A stretch of 64,000 bases of DNA from positions 63,342 through 127,341 of the forward strand of contig NW_001799289.1 of assembly GCF_000165425.1 (NCBI RefSeq). Direction: 5' to 3'. Every line of letters starts with the position of its first letter. The stretch's first letter is position 1. The notes under the pieces were generated by a model. It saw only the letters and a list, made by a program, of their open reading frames with translations, searched no databases and was not told the origin of the DNA. The translations under genes were made by a program, and so were the position numbers. The stretch comes from Paramecium tetraurelia. Its lineage: Eukaryota; Ciliophora; Oligohymenophorea; Peniculida; Parameciidae. Below are positions 21,538 to 31,637 of this stretch, piece after piece.

Positions 21538-24500
21538 ATGTTTTAATTGTATGAGAATGCCGAGAATTCAACCTACTCTTTTGAGTTCAAGTTGGATCTA
21601 ACCTTGTTGAATGTGTTGCGATCATTCACACACAAAGATCATGAATTTCAGGAGGGTATAAAATTAATAAGATTTAAGGGTATTTGGAATCAATTTATGC
21701 ATTGTTGTACTACTATCAGGGGAAGCCAGAGAGTGAGTTATTTTCAGAGTACTGTGCCTAGAAGGGAAATCACACAATCGAGGCTTTAATATTTTAGGGT
21801 AACATTAATTGAATATACGTAGTGCATTATTATATTGCATCGCTAGCAAATTTAAATTAGTTGGTGGGATTCCTGAAGGCAGACGAGAACAAAGTTATCC
21901 CATTATCGAGAAGTGACATCAACAAAACAAATATCTTGTCAGTGCATTCGATCACAGATCGAGTGGGTTCCATAAATAGCACTGTATTGGTGAGCAAGTC
22001 CTAGACTGTGAAACCAGAGTATCTTGATTTAAGAGTGAAGATATGCACCTATGAGAATAAAGAGGAAGGAGTATTTTCTATAGATTATAATGTGCTCTCA
22101 TTGGCAATATAAGCCAAAGGTAAGTTGGATCCATTGGTAGGAAGTCATTTGGCCAATAAATTGAATAAGATGTTTAAATTGGAGTTGTATCACATTCTCT
22201 TGCATTTTGCCGATAAGAAAGGGTAGGTGACAGAGAATTATGATGAAAGATGCATGATCATTGTAAATGGAGTCAGCAATTTCTCATTTCACAAAAAGGA
22301 GTTCACTGATTTGAGAGACAAGTTCATTAGACTCTCATATGGAAATGTGGAGAAGAATGTCGATGAAATAACTAAGTTATTAATGGACTTAGACCAAGAT
22401 GTTGGTAAATCAATTATAGCAAGAGATACAAAGAGTAATCATTATTTGGAGAAATTATTGGTTGGTTTGTTGGGAAATCCATTATAATTGATAAGAGATC
22501 AAGCAATCATTTTATTGAATATTTTATATGATGGTGTGGATTGGTAAAAGAGAGTGCCATTCAAACCCAAGATAACAAAGGTAGGATCTAAATTTGATAT
22601 ACAATACTTATTTGAATATGATTCATCATATCCTTTAAGTTCAATTGTTATTCTCTTGAAGAGTTACATATTTGATTCTGGATGCAAATAAAATATAGTA
22701 TCATGGCACAAACCTAAATTGAGTGAGTATAGTAATTAGGGAGATAAAAAGTATATGGCATTTAAGATGGATTTTGGTAGATTCAAGAGATGTGGTTTTT
22801 ATGATTGGAAGTTAATTAGAATGACAACTTCTGGTAAATTGCAGAGTCTTCAGAAAATTATGAATTTGGATGAATTGAAAAGCAATGTTGAAATTACAGC
22901 ACTTCAGATGATGGAAGCCAAACCAATTCAAGGAAGATTTATAGTTCATCCTAGAGATTCTAAGAACTTACAAATTCATGAAATTTATGTTGATTTGTTG
23001 GATGCTAAACCAGATAATCAAGGTAAGTTCACAAAGAGGGGAAATTTCAGAAAAGTTCGTGAAAAAATACCTGATTTAGTATAATAAGGAATTAATTGTG
23101 TTTATTTAATGGGTACTTTAGAGAGAGATAATGGATTAATGATTGATTAAGACAAACAATAAAAGTTGTTTAAGAGACCAGATGTCAGTCCATTGGCCAT
23201 TACTTGTAGATTAACACCTAATTAAATGTTGGGAGGCAAAGAGGAGTTCATGCAATTAAATAAGGTTGCTCAATAAAACAAATTAAGAATAATAGTAGAT
23301 ATGGTTACACGTATAAGTAGTGCAAGACCTCATCGAAAATACAGAAAGGATTTGGTATATAGATTGGATGAGTAAGGAAGATCAGTTGCTATGTTTGGTA
23401 CGGATGGAAGATCTATACATTTTGAAGATACAATCATTTTGAACAATAGAAAAAAGAGAGTTTGGGATGTCTTATTGGAAGAAATGATAGAATTGACAAC
23501 TCAATACAATATTCAAGGGGTTCATTTGGATAATGGATCTTCATGGCCATAAATATTTTCTCTTGATTTGGATGAGATGTATAGAAAGGACACTGATGGC
23601 AATCAAGCATATTCCAATAAATAAATCTTTAGTGGTGAAATCTGTTTATAAAATGAAGATTGTGGTTATTGGGGTTCAAGTGTCAAAAACCTATATCCAA
23701 ATCCATTTTTAGTAAAGATTTGTAAGTCCTTATGGAGTAAGTTCCCTAACTTTTTGATTGTGGCAGAGGCTTGGGGTGCAATGGGAGAATAAGAAGAAAG
23801 AGAGATCAATCTGATTTAAAGTGGTGTGATTCCTAGATTATTCAAGTTACCAATTGCTATTGCATCCATATTTGGAGAAAATTTGAAGAAGGATGGTACT
23901 ATGGTCAAGATGGAGAGAAAGAATGTTAATGCAATAAAAAAGTGGATTGAATACACAGCCAAATAATATCCAGCAGGCAGTATCATAGTTTAGAGTACAA
24001 CATATAATTCATGGCCTTATCCTGCTTTAATTTATAAACGAGGTACATGGGCAGCTGTAGATTTGTTCTTTACTTTGTAAGATATTCCTATGACTTTTAT
24101 GGGAGAGGAAGAAGGGTTCGCATTTCGAGAAAAAACAACTAATGTGTTCAATTATGTGACAAAACATGAGAGTTCAGAAATCAAATTGTAAGATCCAACT
24201 TAATAAAAGACACCACAGAGATCACTCAAGAGAGCTGAATCTTATGTTTAAGTTAATGAGGATTATGGATTTGGATACAATACATTAACACATCAAGTTT
24301 AATTATAGATTACATAATCACCTGCCAAATCCAGTAATAGTGGCTAACCTGTAAGAGTACAAAGTGGTTCATCATTGTCATAGATGGATATCTCCAACAT
24401 TGCAACAGCTCAGGAGAATTTTAGAAGAGAAGTGGGACCATAATTTGGATTCGATTTATAACAGATTGGAAAACATTATGTTCACATTAGACAAATGAGA

Positions 24501-27156
24501 AAACAACATAAAGTGTTAAGAAATGGATAGATGGTATCATTGTCAGCTGAACATATGTATGGATGGCATACACATGTGTTGGCCTTTGCTAGGTATTCTA
24601 AAGATGAAATGGCCTTGATTGCTATAAATTTTAATGATGGTGAAATTGATATGTTCATGAATCTTAGAAATTTAAGATATTATTTTCCTAATTCAGAAAG
24701 ATCTAATATTGTTGTAAGATTACGAAATTGGTCATATCCTAATTTGGAGAATGAAGAGACAAGCTACTTTTATATTGGTAACTTTTTGACATCCAGATTA
24801 GAGGTTCATCTGAAGAACTTTTAATCTTAAATTTGGGGAGTTGAAATCTTAGGTAACTCTTAGGAGGTCCAATAAAAAGCTTAGAAAAGTGCATTGATTA
24901 GATTGTAATAGAAGATGTCATCAAACATTCCATTAACTATCTATGGAAATGATGCTGCAAATAAGTTGACATTATTAACAGACAACTTGAATTCTTTGTA
25001 GTAATTTATCAATGGCTTTTCTCACTATTACACTCGAGTGATTAAACCAAATAACTTTGATTTGAATAGATTGATCAGTTCAATGAAGGATTTCCAATCT
25101 AATAAAGTGAGATTGTGTAAACTATTTGCATTCTTCTAATCGATACTTGGAACTCAAGATAAGAATTTGCCTTTCTATGACACACTATAATAATTGATTA
25201 ATCTTAACAAATTGGGACCCATGTGTTTCTGTACTCCTGAGTTGGGCAAATGGACTACAACTGGTGGATTGGGAGTAATGGTAGATGAATTAACATAAGA
25301 ATTAGCCAAAATGAATGAAGAAGTCATCCTGATCACTCCTTATTATCATAGAAATAAGAAAGGGGAAACAGGATATATACTCAGTGATGGATTCTAGCAC
25401 ATTAGAAATATCGAAATTTGGTTGTAGGGTGAAAAGATAATAATGGGTGTTTTTGAAGGAGTTTTCAATGGAGTAAGATTGTTTTGGTTACATAATGAAC
25501 AATATTTCCCATCTGCATATGCAGGGGAAGATGCTAGTTATGTTATGAAATAATTAACAGTTTATGCTAAAGGATGTTTAGAATTATTATGTTAAATCAA
25601 ACTTATTCCTTCATTAATTGTCACTAACGATTGGTTCTGTGGTTTAATCCCAGGATATCTCAGAGTAAGAAGATATGGCGAAGCCTTTGCTGGTACTAAA
25701 TCATTTCACATTGTTCACAATTTGGACCCTTTATATGAAGGAAGACTTTATCCAAAACCAAACGAAGGAAAATTGGACTATATTCATGAACTTCCTAACG
25801 ATTTCTTTGTTGATCCATACTGGCAGAATTTAGTTATAAACCCATCAAGATGTCCATTGATTACATGTGATAATTGGGGAACAGTTTCTTAATCTTATAA
25901 ATATGAATTGTTAGAGTCCTCCCCATTAGCAAGTGTGTTGAGGAGACATCCTCATCCTTTTGCTTTTCCCAACGGTATCAGAAGAGAATAAAGATTCAAG
26001 GTGATTATGGATAAAACTAACAATGATCATTTGAAGGCCAAGGAATAATTGTAAAAGAAATATTTTGGTTGTTCCTAACTTGAAAATCACATTGTTGTAC
26101 TAGGCTTTGTAGGTAGAGTCACTAAACAAAAGGGAGTTCATCTCATATTGGAAGTTGCTGAAGAACTAATTTAAAGAAGTCAAGGCACTGTTTAGATATT
26201 AGTTGGTGGACCTGCTGATATGAAAGAGGAGTACAGTGCATTTTGTGCTTAGAATATGATCAGATTGAAATCTATTTATCCTAGGAACTTTTGGGCTGAT
26301 CCATCTGCATTCTTTATGGATGGTACTTTAGTGAATGTTGGTTGTGATTTTGGATTAATGCCATCATTATTCGAACCTGGAGGTATAGTTTAACATGAGT
26401 TCTTTATTGGAAGCACTCCAGTTATTGCCTTTAAGACTGGTGGGTTAAGGGATACTGTCCATGAATATGATTAGAAACAATAAAAGGGATCTGGATTCAT
26501 TTTTGATTAATACAATAGAGGAAACTTCTTATATTCTATAGACAGAGCTCTCTAATTATACAAGAATCAAGACTAGTACACTCAGCTAAGAAAAAATGCC
26601 TTTGATGCAGCTATTGATGTTGCTGATGTAAGCAGAGCATGGGCTTAAGAATATTACAGATTATTTGAAAAGAACTTTATAGATAAAGAATTAGTTTAGT
26701 AAATGGTTGGACAAATTCAATAAGATTATAAAGAATTAAAGGAACAAGAGCTTTTTACAAAAGAAGAAGGAAGAGTAATGATTTTATATCTATATTTAGG
26801 TATTTTCTAATTCAGACAAAACCCTTAAGAATTTTGAAAGGATTTTGGCTCATGCAAAGAGATCCAATTTGAGATTACATTAATTTGTGTATCGATCAAC
26901 TAGACTGTTGCAACCAAGATAAGTAGCTGTGTCTGGTTCATTTGATGAATGGAAGGAGAAACACAAACTCAAATTTGATCATTTCTCCAAGGTCTGGAAT
27001 GTTACACTGAAACTCCTTCCTGGAGAATATTAGTATTTAATTTATATTATACTAAGTTATAAATTCTATGTTGATGGAGAGTGGATTTGCACAGATGACG
27101 ATCTTAAAGATAACGACATATATGGTAATATAAATAATTTTGTCATCATTTAATGA
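21538..27156 (+). CDS. Glycogen synthase (GT5) fused to degenerate GH13/debranching-like domain and CBM48-like module
   Basis: Encodes 1840 residues with four introns (23, 24, 25 and 24 nt), frame exact. The first 450 residues are unfamiliar. About 470-1070 is a GH13 alpha-amylase/debranching fold: IIVDMVTRI (region I), GVHLDNGS (II) and FLIVAEAWG (III). About 1210-1705 is a complete GT5 synthase: TTGGLGVMVDEL, GFVGRVTKQKGVHLILE, FEPGGIVQHEFF with the E-x7-E pair, and FKTGGLRDTV. The last 80 residues are a CBM48/AMPK-type glycogen-binding module (VAVSGSFDEWKE to EYYYKFYVDGEWICTDDD). The protein should elongate alpha-1,4-glucan from a nucleotide-glucose. GH13 region II has His for the usual Arg, and the NHD of region IV is missing, so this domain is probably non-hydrolytic. 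The first KTGGL has Thr for Lys. Confidence 0.9.
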
Positions 27157-27560: not shown

Positions 27561-29409
27561 TCAATAATCAAAATTTTGTTACAGATATTTAGTAAAAGAC
27601 GGATCCAATTGAGTTTAATCAGTATAAATAGAAAATGTTAAAAATGTTTTATAATTCGATAAACCTTGTTAGTACTCTTATTAAATTTAGATAGAGCCTT
27701 AAGGGCTAAGAATCTTTAAAATGATTCGATTCACAATACATTCAATTTCAAGTGATTTTTAAGAATCTAAACTTATTGATTGATAAAATTATGATTCTAT
27801 ATTTTCAATTTGATCTTTATGCTCAAAAATATAAGAAAACTAAATTATTTAAAGATCTTGATTTGTCTTTTCATTTTTATCATTTATCGAACTCTATTAA
27901 ACTTGTTTTTTATCAATTGATAATTGAATACAACTCCTAGGTTCAGATAACTTTAAAATCTTATTAAAAATATTTATTAGAAGCTAAGTCAATAATTTGC
28001 TGTTTAAAGTAATTAATTGTAATTCTAAATCATATGAGCAATTAAGCAAGAATTACTTTCGATGTTATTGAGTATAATATATAAAATAATCTAACAAAGC
28101 TTCGTTTAGTTTTTCAATTGTCAATGTTTCATATTATTACTTTAAAAATGATATTCTACCTTTTTATAGATATATCAAGTGATTTTTTATGTAGTTTAAT
28201 GAAAATTAAATATTACTGTAAGATTTCCTCAAAATTTCATTTTCAATAATTAAATGATCATTAAGATTTAACAATGTTTTATAGAGCTCTTCAAATTTAT
28301 TACCAATTACCATAAGAACTGATTTAAAGTTTTCATTTAAATCTTTTATAATATGTTCATATTTTTCAATTTAATGTTTAGCTTGATTTTCTTTAATAGA
28401 GAGAAAGAATTGAGTTTTTTGATTTTCAAATTTCAAAATGTCAATTAAATATTTTTCTTTTCCATTATTTGTTTCAATTAAGAATCTATCTTAATTGAAA
28501 TAATCTAATTTTTGTTAAACCAACTCAAAGAGATATTCTTCTAAATTGATTTGTTTATTTATTTATTTATTATTTAAACTTCGATATGAATTTTAATTAT
28601 TTCTGTTGATAATTGATTAGCTTCTTAAAAATTCTTTTACATTATTCTCATCTAAATCAGTTTTATATAGAGATTCAAACTTCTTATTAGCAAATGAAAG
28701 TTGAAAGCTTCTTGAATTCTCATCATACATTATAGCAAATAAAGAATCATTTGTAAATTCATATAAAATCGACCTAATTTATAAGGCAAAATTTACTTTT
28801 GTATTTCTACTGATTTGCTAAGGAAAAATTATGATCTTCTATTATCTTCATATATATATGTCTAAACGCCCAATAAAAAAAACATAGAAAATGAACAAAC
28901 TATATATTAAATGTATGCAATTTCAAATGGAACAAAGAAACCTATTATTGCGCAATTAGTTATGAGCACATATAAAACTTTCAATCTACTATCACAATGT
29001 TACAAAACACAAGAGTGCAGTACGCCGGATGTAATACCAAAATCATAAAGAGGTCTTAAAATCAATAGAAATCTTACACGTAAAATCCAATATAAGCTAG
29101 GAATATTCCTCCTGCTACATAACATACATATAAAATTGAAAAAATAGGCTTTAAACAATTTTTAAATTTCTGACTAAAGAATAATATTATGAGGTGCATA
29201 AGGAAAAAAACAGCCATCAAAGTAATCAAGTAAGCCGATTAATCTTGAATTATAAATGCCAGCATTCCAAAAAAGCAAGGTAACATAAGAGTAACTAATA
29301 ATGCTCTAAAAAATAATAATCTTTGATTATTAAGATAGTTGTTATATTCTGTTTCTTAAATAGGGTTAGAAAACGAAAATGTCCATACCTTAAAGAAATT
29401 TGTCATCAT
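27561..29409 (-). CDS. Six-helix membrane sensor with histidine-kinase-like C-terminus, copy A
   Basis: Encodes 600 residues with two 23-nt introns. Residues 30-180 hold about six membrane helices (RALLVTLMLPCFFGMLAFII; FFLLGVQTYIY). Residues about 200-250 look like a short PAS-type sensor (ILYEFTNDSLFAIMYDENSR). A coiled coil follows, then a two-helix segment (LNENFKSVLMVIGNKFEELY) where a histidine kinase would have its H-box. An ATPase-like domain is recognisable from QLLINIFNKILKLSEP and IILKILSPQGSIQI. The phospho-His position is Asn, the N-box second Asn is Lys, and no DxGxG is seen, so it should not autophosphorylate. It is the downstream partner of a tandem pair. A stimulus-sensing scaffold is my inference. 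Confidence 0.75.
28356..28772 (-). repeat. Nearly identical core shared with 30589-31005
   Basis: About 415 nt match the copy at 30589-31005 with only a couple of dozen differences by eye. The first 85 nt are identical and only two or three differences occur in the first 200. Identity drops sharply on both sides. The block encodes the PAS-like segment, coiled coil and start of the two-helix segment. The pattern fits recent gene conversion. Confidence 0.8.
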
Positions 29410-29796
29410 TATGATATGTTGTTACAATCTTTTTGAAAATAAATTATTATAGGACCTAATTAATTTATAAAACATAAGTACAATAAATTTTAGAGTAAAT
29501 GATAAAATAATTTTTGAGGATGATTTTGAGTGGTCAAATTTGAATTTTATTAATATAATTATAAATTCAATCCTGCAATTTAAACTTAAATATATCATAA
29601 CAATATTTCCCTAAATTAAAACCCTACATTTATTGCTAGATAATTTGAGACATTTGTTGTGATAAATACAAAAATATGAATTAATATAAAAGAAATGGTT
29701 TGATATGGAAAAAAATAATACGGGTTAAAAAATGTGAAGATAAGTTATTAAACAGGAATTATGTATTTTTATAGCTTTATTAATTAAACTTAATTA
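29410..29796. other. Spacer between the two sensor copies
   Basis: About 390 nt of AT-rich DNA from the stop of copy B to the start of copy A. It must hold the promoter of copy A and the 3' region of copy B. No frame was recognised. Confidence 0.5.
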
Positions 29797-31637
29797 TCAA
29801 AGATTATATAAATCAACATATTTAGTAAAAGATGGATCCAATTGAGTTTAATCAGTATATATATAAAATGTCAAAGTTGTCCTGTGATTTTATAATTTTT
29901 CTTAATAAATGGATTAAATTTAAATAGAACTATAAGGGCTAAGTATCTTCAAAATTATTTAATTCACAACACATTCAATTTAAAATGGATATTGAGAATC
30001 TAAATTAATAGATTAAGAAAATTAGAATTCTAAATTGTCAATTTGATCTTTATGTACAAAAATGTAAGAAAATTACATTAACTAAAGCTCTTAATTTCTA
30101 GTTAAATTATTATCTTTTAATAACTGATATTGTATTAATTTTCTATCAATTTGTAATTGTATAGAACTCTTATCGTTCGATATTATTAGAATTTTATTGA
30201 AAATATTGATTAATAGCTAAGTTAATAATCTTGTATTTAAAAAAATTGATTATTATTCGGCTTCACTCAAATAAACAAATTAAAATTATTTATGGTATTA
30301 TTTACTGTAATGATGAAAGTATTCAGACAATTCTTCAATTAATTTTTGAACTTTAAATTATTCAAATTATTATTTTAAAAATGACATCTTTTCTTTCTAT
30401 AAATAGATCATATAATTTTTTAAATATATTAGTGAATATTAAATATTGCATTGCAATTCTTTAATGAGATCAGTATTTTCTTGAAGATCATCTTTTAAAT
30501 TTAGTATTTATTTATATAATCTTTCTAATCTATGAGAAATTAGTAAGAGTACAGAAATAAAAATAGTATTTAAAGATTTTATTTTAGTTTCATATTTTTC
30601 AATTTAATGTTTAGCTTGATTTTCTTTAATAGAGAGAAAGAATTGAGTTTTTTGATTTTCAAATTTCAAAATGTTAATTAAATATTTTTCTTTTCCATTA
30701 TTTGTTTCAATTAAGAATCTATCTTAATTGAAATAATCTAATTTTTGTTAAACCAGCTCAAAGAGATATTCTTCTAAATTGATTTGTTTATGTATCTATT
30801 TATTATTTAAACTTCGATTTGAACTTTAATTATTTCTGTTGATAATTGATTAGTTTCTTAAAAATTCCTTAACATTGTTCTCATCTAAATTGGTTTTATA
30901 TAAAGATTCGAACTTTTTATTAGCAAATGAAAGTTGAAAGCTTCTTGAATTTTCATCATACATTATAGCAAATAAAGAATCATTTGTAAACTCATATAGA
31001 ATCGATCTAAATTATAAGCAAATTTTACTTTTGTGTTTCTAATTTTTTGGTCAGTAAAAATTAAGACCTTCTATTATATTCAATTAAATATGTCATGATA
31101 CCCAATAAAATAAACATAGATATTGAAAAGACTAAGTATTATATTTAAGCAAGTTCAAACTGAACAAATAATACTAAAGCCAACCAATTGGCGATAAATA
31201 AAAATATCACTTTGAACCTATTGTCGCAATATTATAAGGCACAGCTGAACAATAAACCGCAAGAAAGCCCAAAATCAAAAAGCGGTCTAAAATAAGAAAC
31301 TTTCTTACACTTTAAATCCAATATAAGCTAAATAAAAAGCAGCTGTTATATAAGAAGCATATAGGATTGTCATAATCAACTTTAAGCAATAAATTAGTTT
31401 ATAGCTAAAGAATAAAAATACTATATGCAAAATGAATAAAACTGCCATAAAACTCACTAAATAGGCAGATTAATTTTGAACAATAAAGACCAGCATTGCA
31501 AAAAAGCAAGAGAGCATTATTGTGATTAATAATGCTCTTAAAAAAAAGAGCCTTTAATTATTGAGAAAATCCTAATATTCTGCTTCATAAATTGGGTTAG
31601 TAAACTAAAGTTTCCATTATTTAAATAATGATGCCAT
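29797..31637 (-). CDS. Six-helix membrane sensor with histidine-kinase-like C-terminus, copy B
   Basis: Encodes 598 residues with two 22-nt introns at the same positions as in copy A. Every part has its counterpart: the opening MASLFKQWKLQFTNPIYEAE, the helices (RALLITIMLSCFFAMLVFIV), the PAS-like block (ILYEFTNDSLFAIMYDENSR, identical to A), the coiled coil, and the ATPase-like end (QLLINIFNKILIISND; IILKILSPYSSIQI; TDQTQLDPSFTKY). The Asn replacing the H-box His and the altered N-box are shared with A, so the loss predates the duplication. Intact frames in both copies argue that both are used. Confidence 0.75.

What the first reader, a model, noticed from the sequence alone, without database searches (positions are those of the whole stretch)
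27561..31637. Tandem pair of membrane sensors ending in a dead histidine-kinase-like domain
Both copies join about six membrane helices, a PAS-like block, a coiled coil and a recognisable kinase ATPase remnant. By alignment with the H-box (HELRTPLNAIIG type) the phosphorylated His is Asn in both copies (NENFKSVLMVIG; NTIFISVLLLIS). The second N-box Asn is Lys (NIFNK), and no DxGxG is present. The same losses in two intact genes suggest a conserved non-catalytic signalling design rather than decay.
Basis: partly seen in the sequence, partly recalled or inferred. Interest (0 to 1): 0.72.

Follow-up and report, generated by a model that had tools for sequence, protein, structure and literature searches.

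The report
Dead histidine-kinase-like membrane receptor family
Two neighbouring ciliate genes encode membrane sensors whose built-in kinase appears to have lost its chemistry yet is kept intact by selection, and they belong to a family of at least thirteen such sensors related to working kinases in the same cell.

Summary
Two intact tandem genes on the minus strand (ciliate code, Paramecium-like) each encode a membrane head, a PAS-like domain, a helix and a degenerate histidine-kinase (HK) ATPase domain. They belong to at least 13 paralogues in the same genome. In 13 of 13 the Mg-binding N-box Asn is lost and no DxGxG or GxG remains. No His is conserved near the H-box. Profiles tie the PAS-HK part to HKs of the same genome (E 1e-7) and eight family heads to eight hybrid-HK heads there (E 2.1e-7). 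An intact HK core finds 145 stretches but none of the 13. Purifying selection acts on the dead domain in the nine pairs tested. Most likely these are non-catalytic pseudo-HK receptors that signal by protein contact, perhaps by pairing with or competing against intact kinases. Gene conversion has made the two PAS regions nearly identical.

The parts
29797..31637 (-). Gene B: exons 31637-31309, 31286-31029, 31006-29797; 598-aa protein; membrane head + PAS + DHp-like helix + dead HATPase
   Evidence: ORFs under code 6 joined over GT..AG introns give one open frame to TGA
27561..29409 (-). Gene A: exons 29409-29078, 29054-28797, 28773-27561; same architecture; first of two adjacent ATGs used
   Evidence: intron 1 ends in AAG and contains an in-frame TGA if retained
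31029..31637 (-). Gene B membrane head (exons 1-2), beginning with a W-x-L-x-F-x-(N/D)...E..Y motif
   Evidence: hydropathy; hhalign of 8 family heads to 8 hybrid-HK heads of the same genome, E 2.1e-7, 178 columns
28797..29409 (-). Gene A membrane head (exons 1-2)
30590..31006 (-). Gene B PAS-like domain (start of exon 3)
   Evidence: AF2 model made for copy A has PAS-type order in residues 11-129; PAS-only hhalign score 38.0 vs 16.6 best of 30 shuffles
28357..28773 (-). Gene A PAS-like domain, 96% identical to B over 138 residues
29800..30589 (-). Gene B DHp-like helix and degenerate CA (HATPase) domain, ending in the YTDQTQLDPSF tail
   Evidence: CA-only hhalign score 44.7 vs 17.2 best of 30 shuffles; N-box NIFNKI
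27564..28356 (-). Gene A DHp-like helix and degenerate CA domain
28356..28802 (-). Converted tract in A (intron 2 + PAS): 447 bp, 22 mismatches (95%) vs 70% outside
   Evidence: 0 of 2000 permutations reach it; dS 0.16 in the PAS part vs 3.7 in DHp-CA
30589..31034 (-). Converted tract in B

Best explanation
Both genes encode pseudo-histidine-kinase membrane receptors. SHOWN: modules homologous to and in the same order as those of hybrid HKs of the same genome (membrane head, PAS, DHp, CA), no receiver domain, the N-box Mg Asn and all Gly-rich loop signatures lost in 13 of 13 paralogues, and purifying selection on the dead domain. INFERRED: the protein does not bind ATP productively or autophosphorylate. 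A signal sensed by head and PAS is passed down a dimeric helix to change what the CA-derived domain and its conserved tail bind. The likeliest partners are the intact hybrid HKs with related heads, joined in mixed dimers or competed with for ligand or partner.
For: Homology to HKs: hhalign E 1e-7, probability 94%, 372 columns; 68.0 against a best of 23.7 in 60 shuffles. AF2 from 8 rows gives PAS, long helix and HATPase-like order (mean pLDDT 61). The 50 Foldseek rows shown (of 844 at E up to 10) are HKs, plant phytochromes and other two-component or HK-containing chains (best 8a52 E 5.6e-11; ThkA CA 3a0y TMt 0.76). The only 2 PDB sequence hits of the profile are HKs, weak at E 0.19 and 0.21. 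Head homology to 8 hybrid HKs: E 2.1e-7, probability 94%; 8 of 8 carry a receiver match and an HK-core match, and the 3 read by letter have all boxes intact. Catalytic losses 13 of 13. Selection.
Against: No Pfam HK or PAS model hits the 8 members scanned at E up to 10 (filters drop most weak matches). Module by module the hhalign probabilities are moderate: PAS 54%, DHp+CA 63%, CA 73%, and the E-values are for single chosen comparisons. Plain hmmsearch of the family profile against HK ORFs gave nothing significant (best E 0.014). The AF2 model is of medium confidence and shows one long helix, not a DHp hairpin; the window-only two-row model is uninformative (pLDDT 32). dS is saturated in most pairs, so omega values are imprecise. 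Gene A's intron 1 has an AAG acceptor. No expression, partner or ligand data; the mixed-dimer step has no direct support.
Confidence: 0.78

Rival explanations
1. Decaying HK pseudogenes that have so far kept their reading frames.
For: Catalytic motifs are gone; gene A has an AAG intron 1 acceptor; the near-identity of the two PAS regions reflects conversion, not constraint alone.
Against: omega=1 rejected in all nine pairs tested including the dead domain (2dlnL 57.0 or more in DHp-CA); 13 paralogues with long open frames; a shared C-terminal tail in 12 of 13.
Confidence: 0.05
2. Not dead but re-tooled: the domain binds another nucleotide or small ligand, or the lone His of copy B (one turn past the profile-register site) is phosphorylated in trans by an intact kinase partner.
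For: Copy B has ISHRLERL at the +4 register, which scores best on the alpha1 helix alone; the first N-box Asn is retained 13 of 13.
Against: That His is in 1 of 13; at +4 A has Asn and C6 Lys; no GxG in any member.
Confidence: 0.1
3. A scaffold for a non-two-component effector (as with plant phytochrome HKRD), independent of any intact HK.
For: Loss of receiver and catalysis; conserved tail after the last strand; phytochromes A and B are among the best structural matches, and the PHYB HKRD works by dimerisation (PMC5712524, passages).
Against: The membrane head is homologous to that of eight hybrid HKs of the same cell, which makes pairing or competition within the HK set plausible.
Confidence: 0.3
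4. Unrelated membrane coiled-coil protein; HK likeness is convergence or composition.
For: Invisible to Pfam, to plain hmmsearch and to a search with an intact HK core (none of the 13 among 145 matches).
Against: Head, PAS and CA each align with HK modules well above shuffles, plus fold matches.
Confidence: 0.05

Closest known systems
Intact hybrid HKs of the same genome with a related membrane head (on C33, C57, C185, C187, C191, C153, C175, C160)
   Same: Homologous membrane head, PAS and HK core in the same order
   Different: They have an HK-core match (8 of 8; in C153 and C191 the match does not reach the H-box) and a receiver match (8 of 8); H, N, G1, G2 boxes are intact in the 3 read by letter. 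The window pair has none of these.
DivL pseudo-histidine kinase (Caulobacter)
   Same: PAS + HK fold used without kinase activity; phospho-acceptor replaced (Tyr) (PMC4211667, passages)
   Different: DivL keeps the N, G1, F and G2 boxes and binds an ATP analogue weakly (same passages); the ciliate family has lost the boxes
Plant phytochrome HK-related domain (PHYB HKRD)
   Same: Eukaryotic HK-derived dimerisation module without the conserved His (PMC5712524, passages); phytochromes are among the best structural matches
   Different: PHYB keeps N, G1, F, G2 motifs (same passages) and is a soluble photoreceptor (recalled); the ciliate proteins have a membrane head
Subfamily-2 ethylene receptors (recalled, no call)
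   Same: Membrane sensor with degenerate HK domain
   Different: Different head and partial degeneration (recalled); no sequence comparison made here

Membership tests
Catalytic histidine kinase (HisKA + HATPase_c) | Phosphorylatable His in the H-box | tested here: not met
   No His at the profile-register site in 13 of 13; register open by about a turn, copy B has a lone His at +4
Catalytic histidine kinase (HisKA + HATPase_c) | N-box Mg-coordinating Asn | tested here: not met
   K,K,K,R,E,E,Q,L,Q,Q,Q,Q,Q in 13 of 13
Catalytic histidine kinase (HisKA + HATPase_c) | G1 (DxGxG) and G2 (GxG) loops | tested here: not met
   No DxGxG and no GxG in 13 of 13 soluble regions (the C170b row stops before the tail)
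Catalytic histidine kinase (HisKA + HATPase_c) | Pfam HATPase_c or HisKA match | tested here: not met
   None in the 8 members scanned, listing up to E 10; 5 of 13 not scanned
Pseudo-histidine kinase (HK fold without catalysis) | HK-derived PAS-DHp-CA fold | tested here: met
   hhalign E 1e-7, controls, Foldseek; model pLDDT 61 with no DHp hairpin resolved
Pseudo-histidine kinase (HK fold without catalysis) | Retained by selection | tested here: met
   omega=1 rejected in nine of nine pairs tested
Pseudo-histidine kinase (HK fold without catalysis) | Absence of ATP binding and kinase activity measured | not testable with these tools
   Needs protein biochemistry
Hybrid histidine kinase | C-terminal receiver domain | tested here: not met
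   Frame of A and B ends after the CA and tail; no Response_reg among the matches of the 8 members scanned
PAS domain protein | PAS fold between membrane head and helix | tested here: met
   AF2 order of elements; PAS-only hhalign 38.0 vs 16.6 shuffle maximum, probability 54%; no Pfam PAS hit

The most novel reading that the evidence does not exclude
A ciliate cell keeps at least 13 dead receptors whose membrane heads are related to those of 8 hybrid histidine kinases. The dead set works as tunable decoy or mixed-dimer subunits that set the gain of the working kinases: a eukaryotic receptor-pseudokinase layer in two-component signalling. Gene conversion keeps the PAS interface of neighbouring copies matched while heads and outputs diverge.
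Probability: 0.25. Interest if true: 0.78.

Novelty: new variant of a known kind. Interest (0 to 1): 0.55.

Why it matters
The two pseudo-histidine kinases compared here through passages (DivL, PHYB) lost the acceptor His but kept the nucleotide-site boxes. This family has lost those too, numbers at least 13 genes, is under selection, and was not seen by Pfam in the 8 members scanned. Ciliates are reported to have greatly expanded histidine kinase families (PMC3341644, passages). A hidden set of dead receptors next to working ones with related heads gives a testable system for whether pseudokinase regulation evolved in eukaryotic two-component signalling. No title or abstract start in the listings of searches (25 of 53 papers listed; 11 of 12; 4 of 4; 2 of 2; 10 of 625; 0) describes such a ciliate family; the library holds only open-licence papers, so this is no proof of absence.

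Tried and rejected
Pfam on window proteins: no HK or PAS match. Comparison with 19 of 28 HK loci aligned only over the CA (E 3.4e-4); the wider set of 26 of 28 (L006 and L063 dropped because the N-box pattern was not found; H-box found in 25 of 28) gave E 1e-7. Head comparison with ten groups of HKs was inconclusive until the missing N-terminal residues of three HKs were added and five more heads; 8 of 13 family heads were used, and of the other 5 four show the W-x-L-x-F start. An alpha1-only register scan does not settle the H-site and ranks the profile register 5th of 29. AF2 of the two window copies alone was uninformative (pLDDT 32). Synteny of C6 with the window: ORFs of 100 aa or more from one strand of the 5.5-kb C6 locus matched only the two genes themselves, so origin by genome duplication is open. 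The direction of conversion cannot be told. Passages of PMC4029085 and PMC11277029 were seen and gave nothing used here; the listings of searches 48 and 50 served only to find PMC5712524.

Full report
WHAT IS THERE. The window lies in a 69-Mb, 231-contig genome. The frames need TAA and TAG read as Gln and have introns of 22-23 nt; I infer a Paramecium species, which no call names. Two genes lie head to tail on the minus strand. Gene B has exons 31637-31309, 31286-31029 and 31006-29797; gene A has exons 29409-29078, 29054-28797 and 28773-27561. Both give a single open frame to TGA. Each protein has an N-terminal hydrophobic region of about 200 residues (about six peaks in B), then a soluble part of about 400 residues. 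Gene A's first intron ends in AAG, and its retention would give an early TGA.

A FAMILY OF AT LEAST 13. Protein searches of the whole genome with A, the B head, and the C31, C220 and C14 paralogues give at least 13 related genes: A, B, one each on C6, C220, C31, C171, C91, C155, C189, C14 and C200, and two on C170. Their soluble parts align over their length, except that one C170 copy breaks before the tail at what may be an intron or a frameshift. The weak matches at C68 (E 0.11), C200:280923 (E 0.0018) and C158 (E 0.16) were not counted.

IT IS HISTIDINE-KINASE-DERIVED. Pfam finds no HK domain in the 8 members scanned, so the case rests on profiles and folds. The 13-member profile against 26 HKs of the same genome gives E 1e-7, probability 94%, over 372 columns from PAS to the end of the CA. 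The score of 68.0 compares with at most 23.7 in 60 column shuffles and 13.2 for the reversed alignment. PAS alone (38.0 vs 16.6 best of 30; probability 54%) and CA alone (44.7 vs 17.2; 73%) each stand out, while adding the DHp helix adds little. AF2 with 8 rows gives mean pLDDT 61 and pTM 0.39: PAS-type order, one long helix 131-213 where a hairpin would be expected, then an HATPase-like order. The 50 Foldseek rows shown are LOV-HK chimeras, phytochromes A and B, WalK, RetS, HK853, ThkA and other two-component or HK-containing chains. TM scores over the whole chain are low (about 0.3) and rmsd is large for the top rows, as expected if domain placement is wrong; the CA of ThkA reaches TMt 0.76. 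A profile search of the PDB returns only two sequences, both HKs, at E 0.19 and 0.21. The window-only two-row model is uninformative.

THE MEMBRANE HEAD IS RELATED TO THAT OF WORKING KINASES. Eight genes carry a head like that of the C33 kinase. Eight of the 13 family heads against these eight give E 2.1e-7, probability 94%, over 178 columns, score 52.9 against at most 21.3 in 60 shuffles. All eight have a receiver match and an HK-core match on the same strand close by. The three read in letters have intact SHDLKTP, NLVANA, SDTGYG and GVGLGL boxes and a receiver start; the boxes of the other five were not read. Head and soluble part together give E 8.6e-6 over 451 columns against three of them.

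HOW DEAD. The second N-box Asn is K, K, K, R, E, E, Q, L, Q, Q, Q, Q, Q in 13 of 13; the first Asn is kept in 13 of 13; DxGxG and even GxG occur in none. An intact HK core finds 145 stretches in the genome and none of the 13 (150 of 161 candidates were scored, and exons count apart). The protein ends just after the CA with a tail of the type (Y/F)(S/T)D(Q/S)xxx(D/E/T)xS(F/Y), seen in 12 of 13 (11 by pattern; C220's is read from the alignment), where the intact kinases run on to a receiver.

THE H-BOX CORRECTION. The profile alignment, and the spacing from the last PAS strand, place the phospho-acceptor at Met in A and Leu in B. In that register 5 of 13 have Asn (context S/A-N-Q for S-H-E), 3 Ile, 2 Ser, 1 Gln. 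This register is not secure: on alpha1 alone it ranks 5th of 29, behind +4, -4, +7 and -14; with the PAS end it ranks 2nd behind -4. At +4, A has Asn and B a His; that His is unique among 13.

SELECTION AND CONVERSION. A codon model with the ciliate code rejects omega=1 in all nine pairs tested over exon 3, and in the DHp-CA part alone (2dlnL 57.0 to 127.7). The nine were chosen from 78 possible pairs and are not independent; dS is saturated in most, so only the rejection is robust. Between A and B, omega is 0.18 overall. A 447-bp tract covering intron 2 and the PAS domain is 95% identical against 70% outside (0 of 2000 permutations), with dS 0.16 in the PAS part against 3.7 in DHp-CA: gene conversion. 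Outside the tract A is slightly closer to C6 than to B in DHp-CA (59%, 56%) but closer to B in the head (57% against 38%), so the order of duplication is not settled. C155, C189 and C200 each sit beside a similar ATPase-like ORF (by eye), which fits retained genome-duplication copies.

HOW IT MOST LIKELY WORKS. Shown: architecture, catalytic losses, selection. From general knowledge of HKs: without the Mg Asn and Gly-rich loops an HK is not expected to bind ATP productively. Inferred: the receptor senses through head and PAS and outputs through binding by the DHp-CA fold and tail. DivL shows that a PAS-HK protein can work with no kinase activity by turning its HK fold into a binding sensor (PMC4211667, passages), and the PHYB HK-related domain works by dimerisation (PMC5712524, passages). 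Because heads are related to those of intact hybrid HKs, mixed dimers or competition with them is my preferred output (about one in three), a scaffold for another effector nearly as likely.

NOVELTY. Pseudo-histidine kinases are a known idea; in bacteria 0.9% of HisKA domains sampled lack the His (722 of 76,471; PMC12632262, passages). Ciliate HK expansion is known (PMC3341644, passages). The new part is a selected, multi-gene membrane family stripped of the nucleotide-site boxes beside its working relatives. I rate it a new variant of a known kind.

Noticed in passing
window 28356-28802 and 30589-31034: A 447-bp near-identical tract (intron 2 + PAS) in otherwise 70%-identical tandem genes: gene conversion confined to the PAS-coding part.
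   Followed up: yes
window 29055-29077: Gene A intron 1 ends AAG where the other three introns of A and B end TAG; may splice poorly or be an early sign of decay of A.
   Followed up: partly
window 21822-26837 (+): Large ORF with a GT5 starch/glycogen synthase domain (PF08323 E 1.4e-33) behind about 1,100 residues without a Pfam match at E 0.01, including amylase-looking stretches by eye.
   Followed up: partly
window 26845-27156 (+): AMPK-type glycogen-binding module (PF16561 E 5.5e-16) directly downstream of the synthase ORF; perhaps an exon of the same gene.
   Followed up: no
window 30532-30534 (gene B): Lone His in ISHRLERL, one helical turn after the profile-register H-site; unique among 13 paralogues.
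   Followed up: partly
L027, L028, L032: Three paralogues (C155, C189, C200) lie next to a similar P-type-ATPase-looking ORF, suggesting genome-duplication copies (by eye).
   Followed up: no
own genome G000: 145 stretches match an intact HK core at E up to 0.001 and 50 receiver matches were scored of 229 candidates: a very large two-component complement.
   Followed up: no
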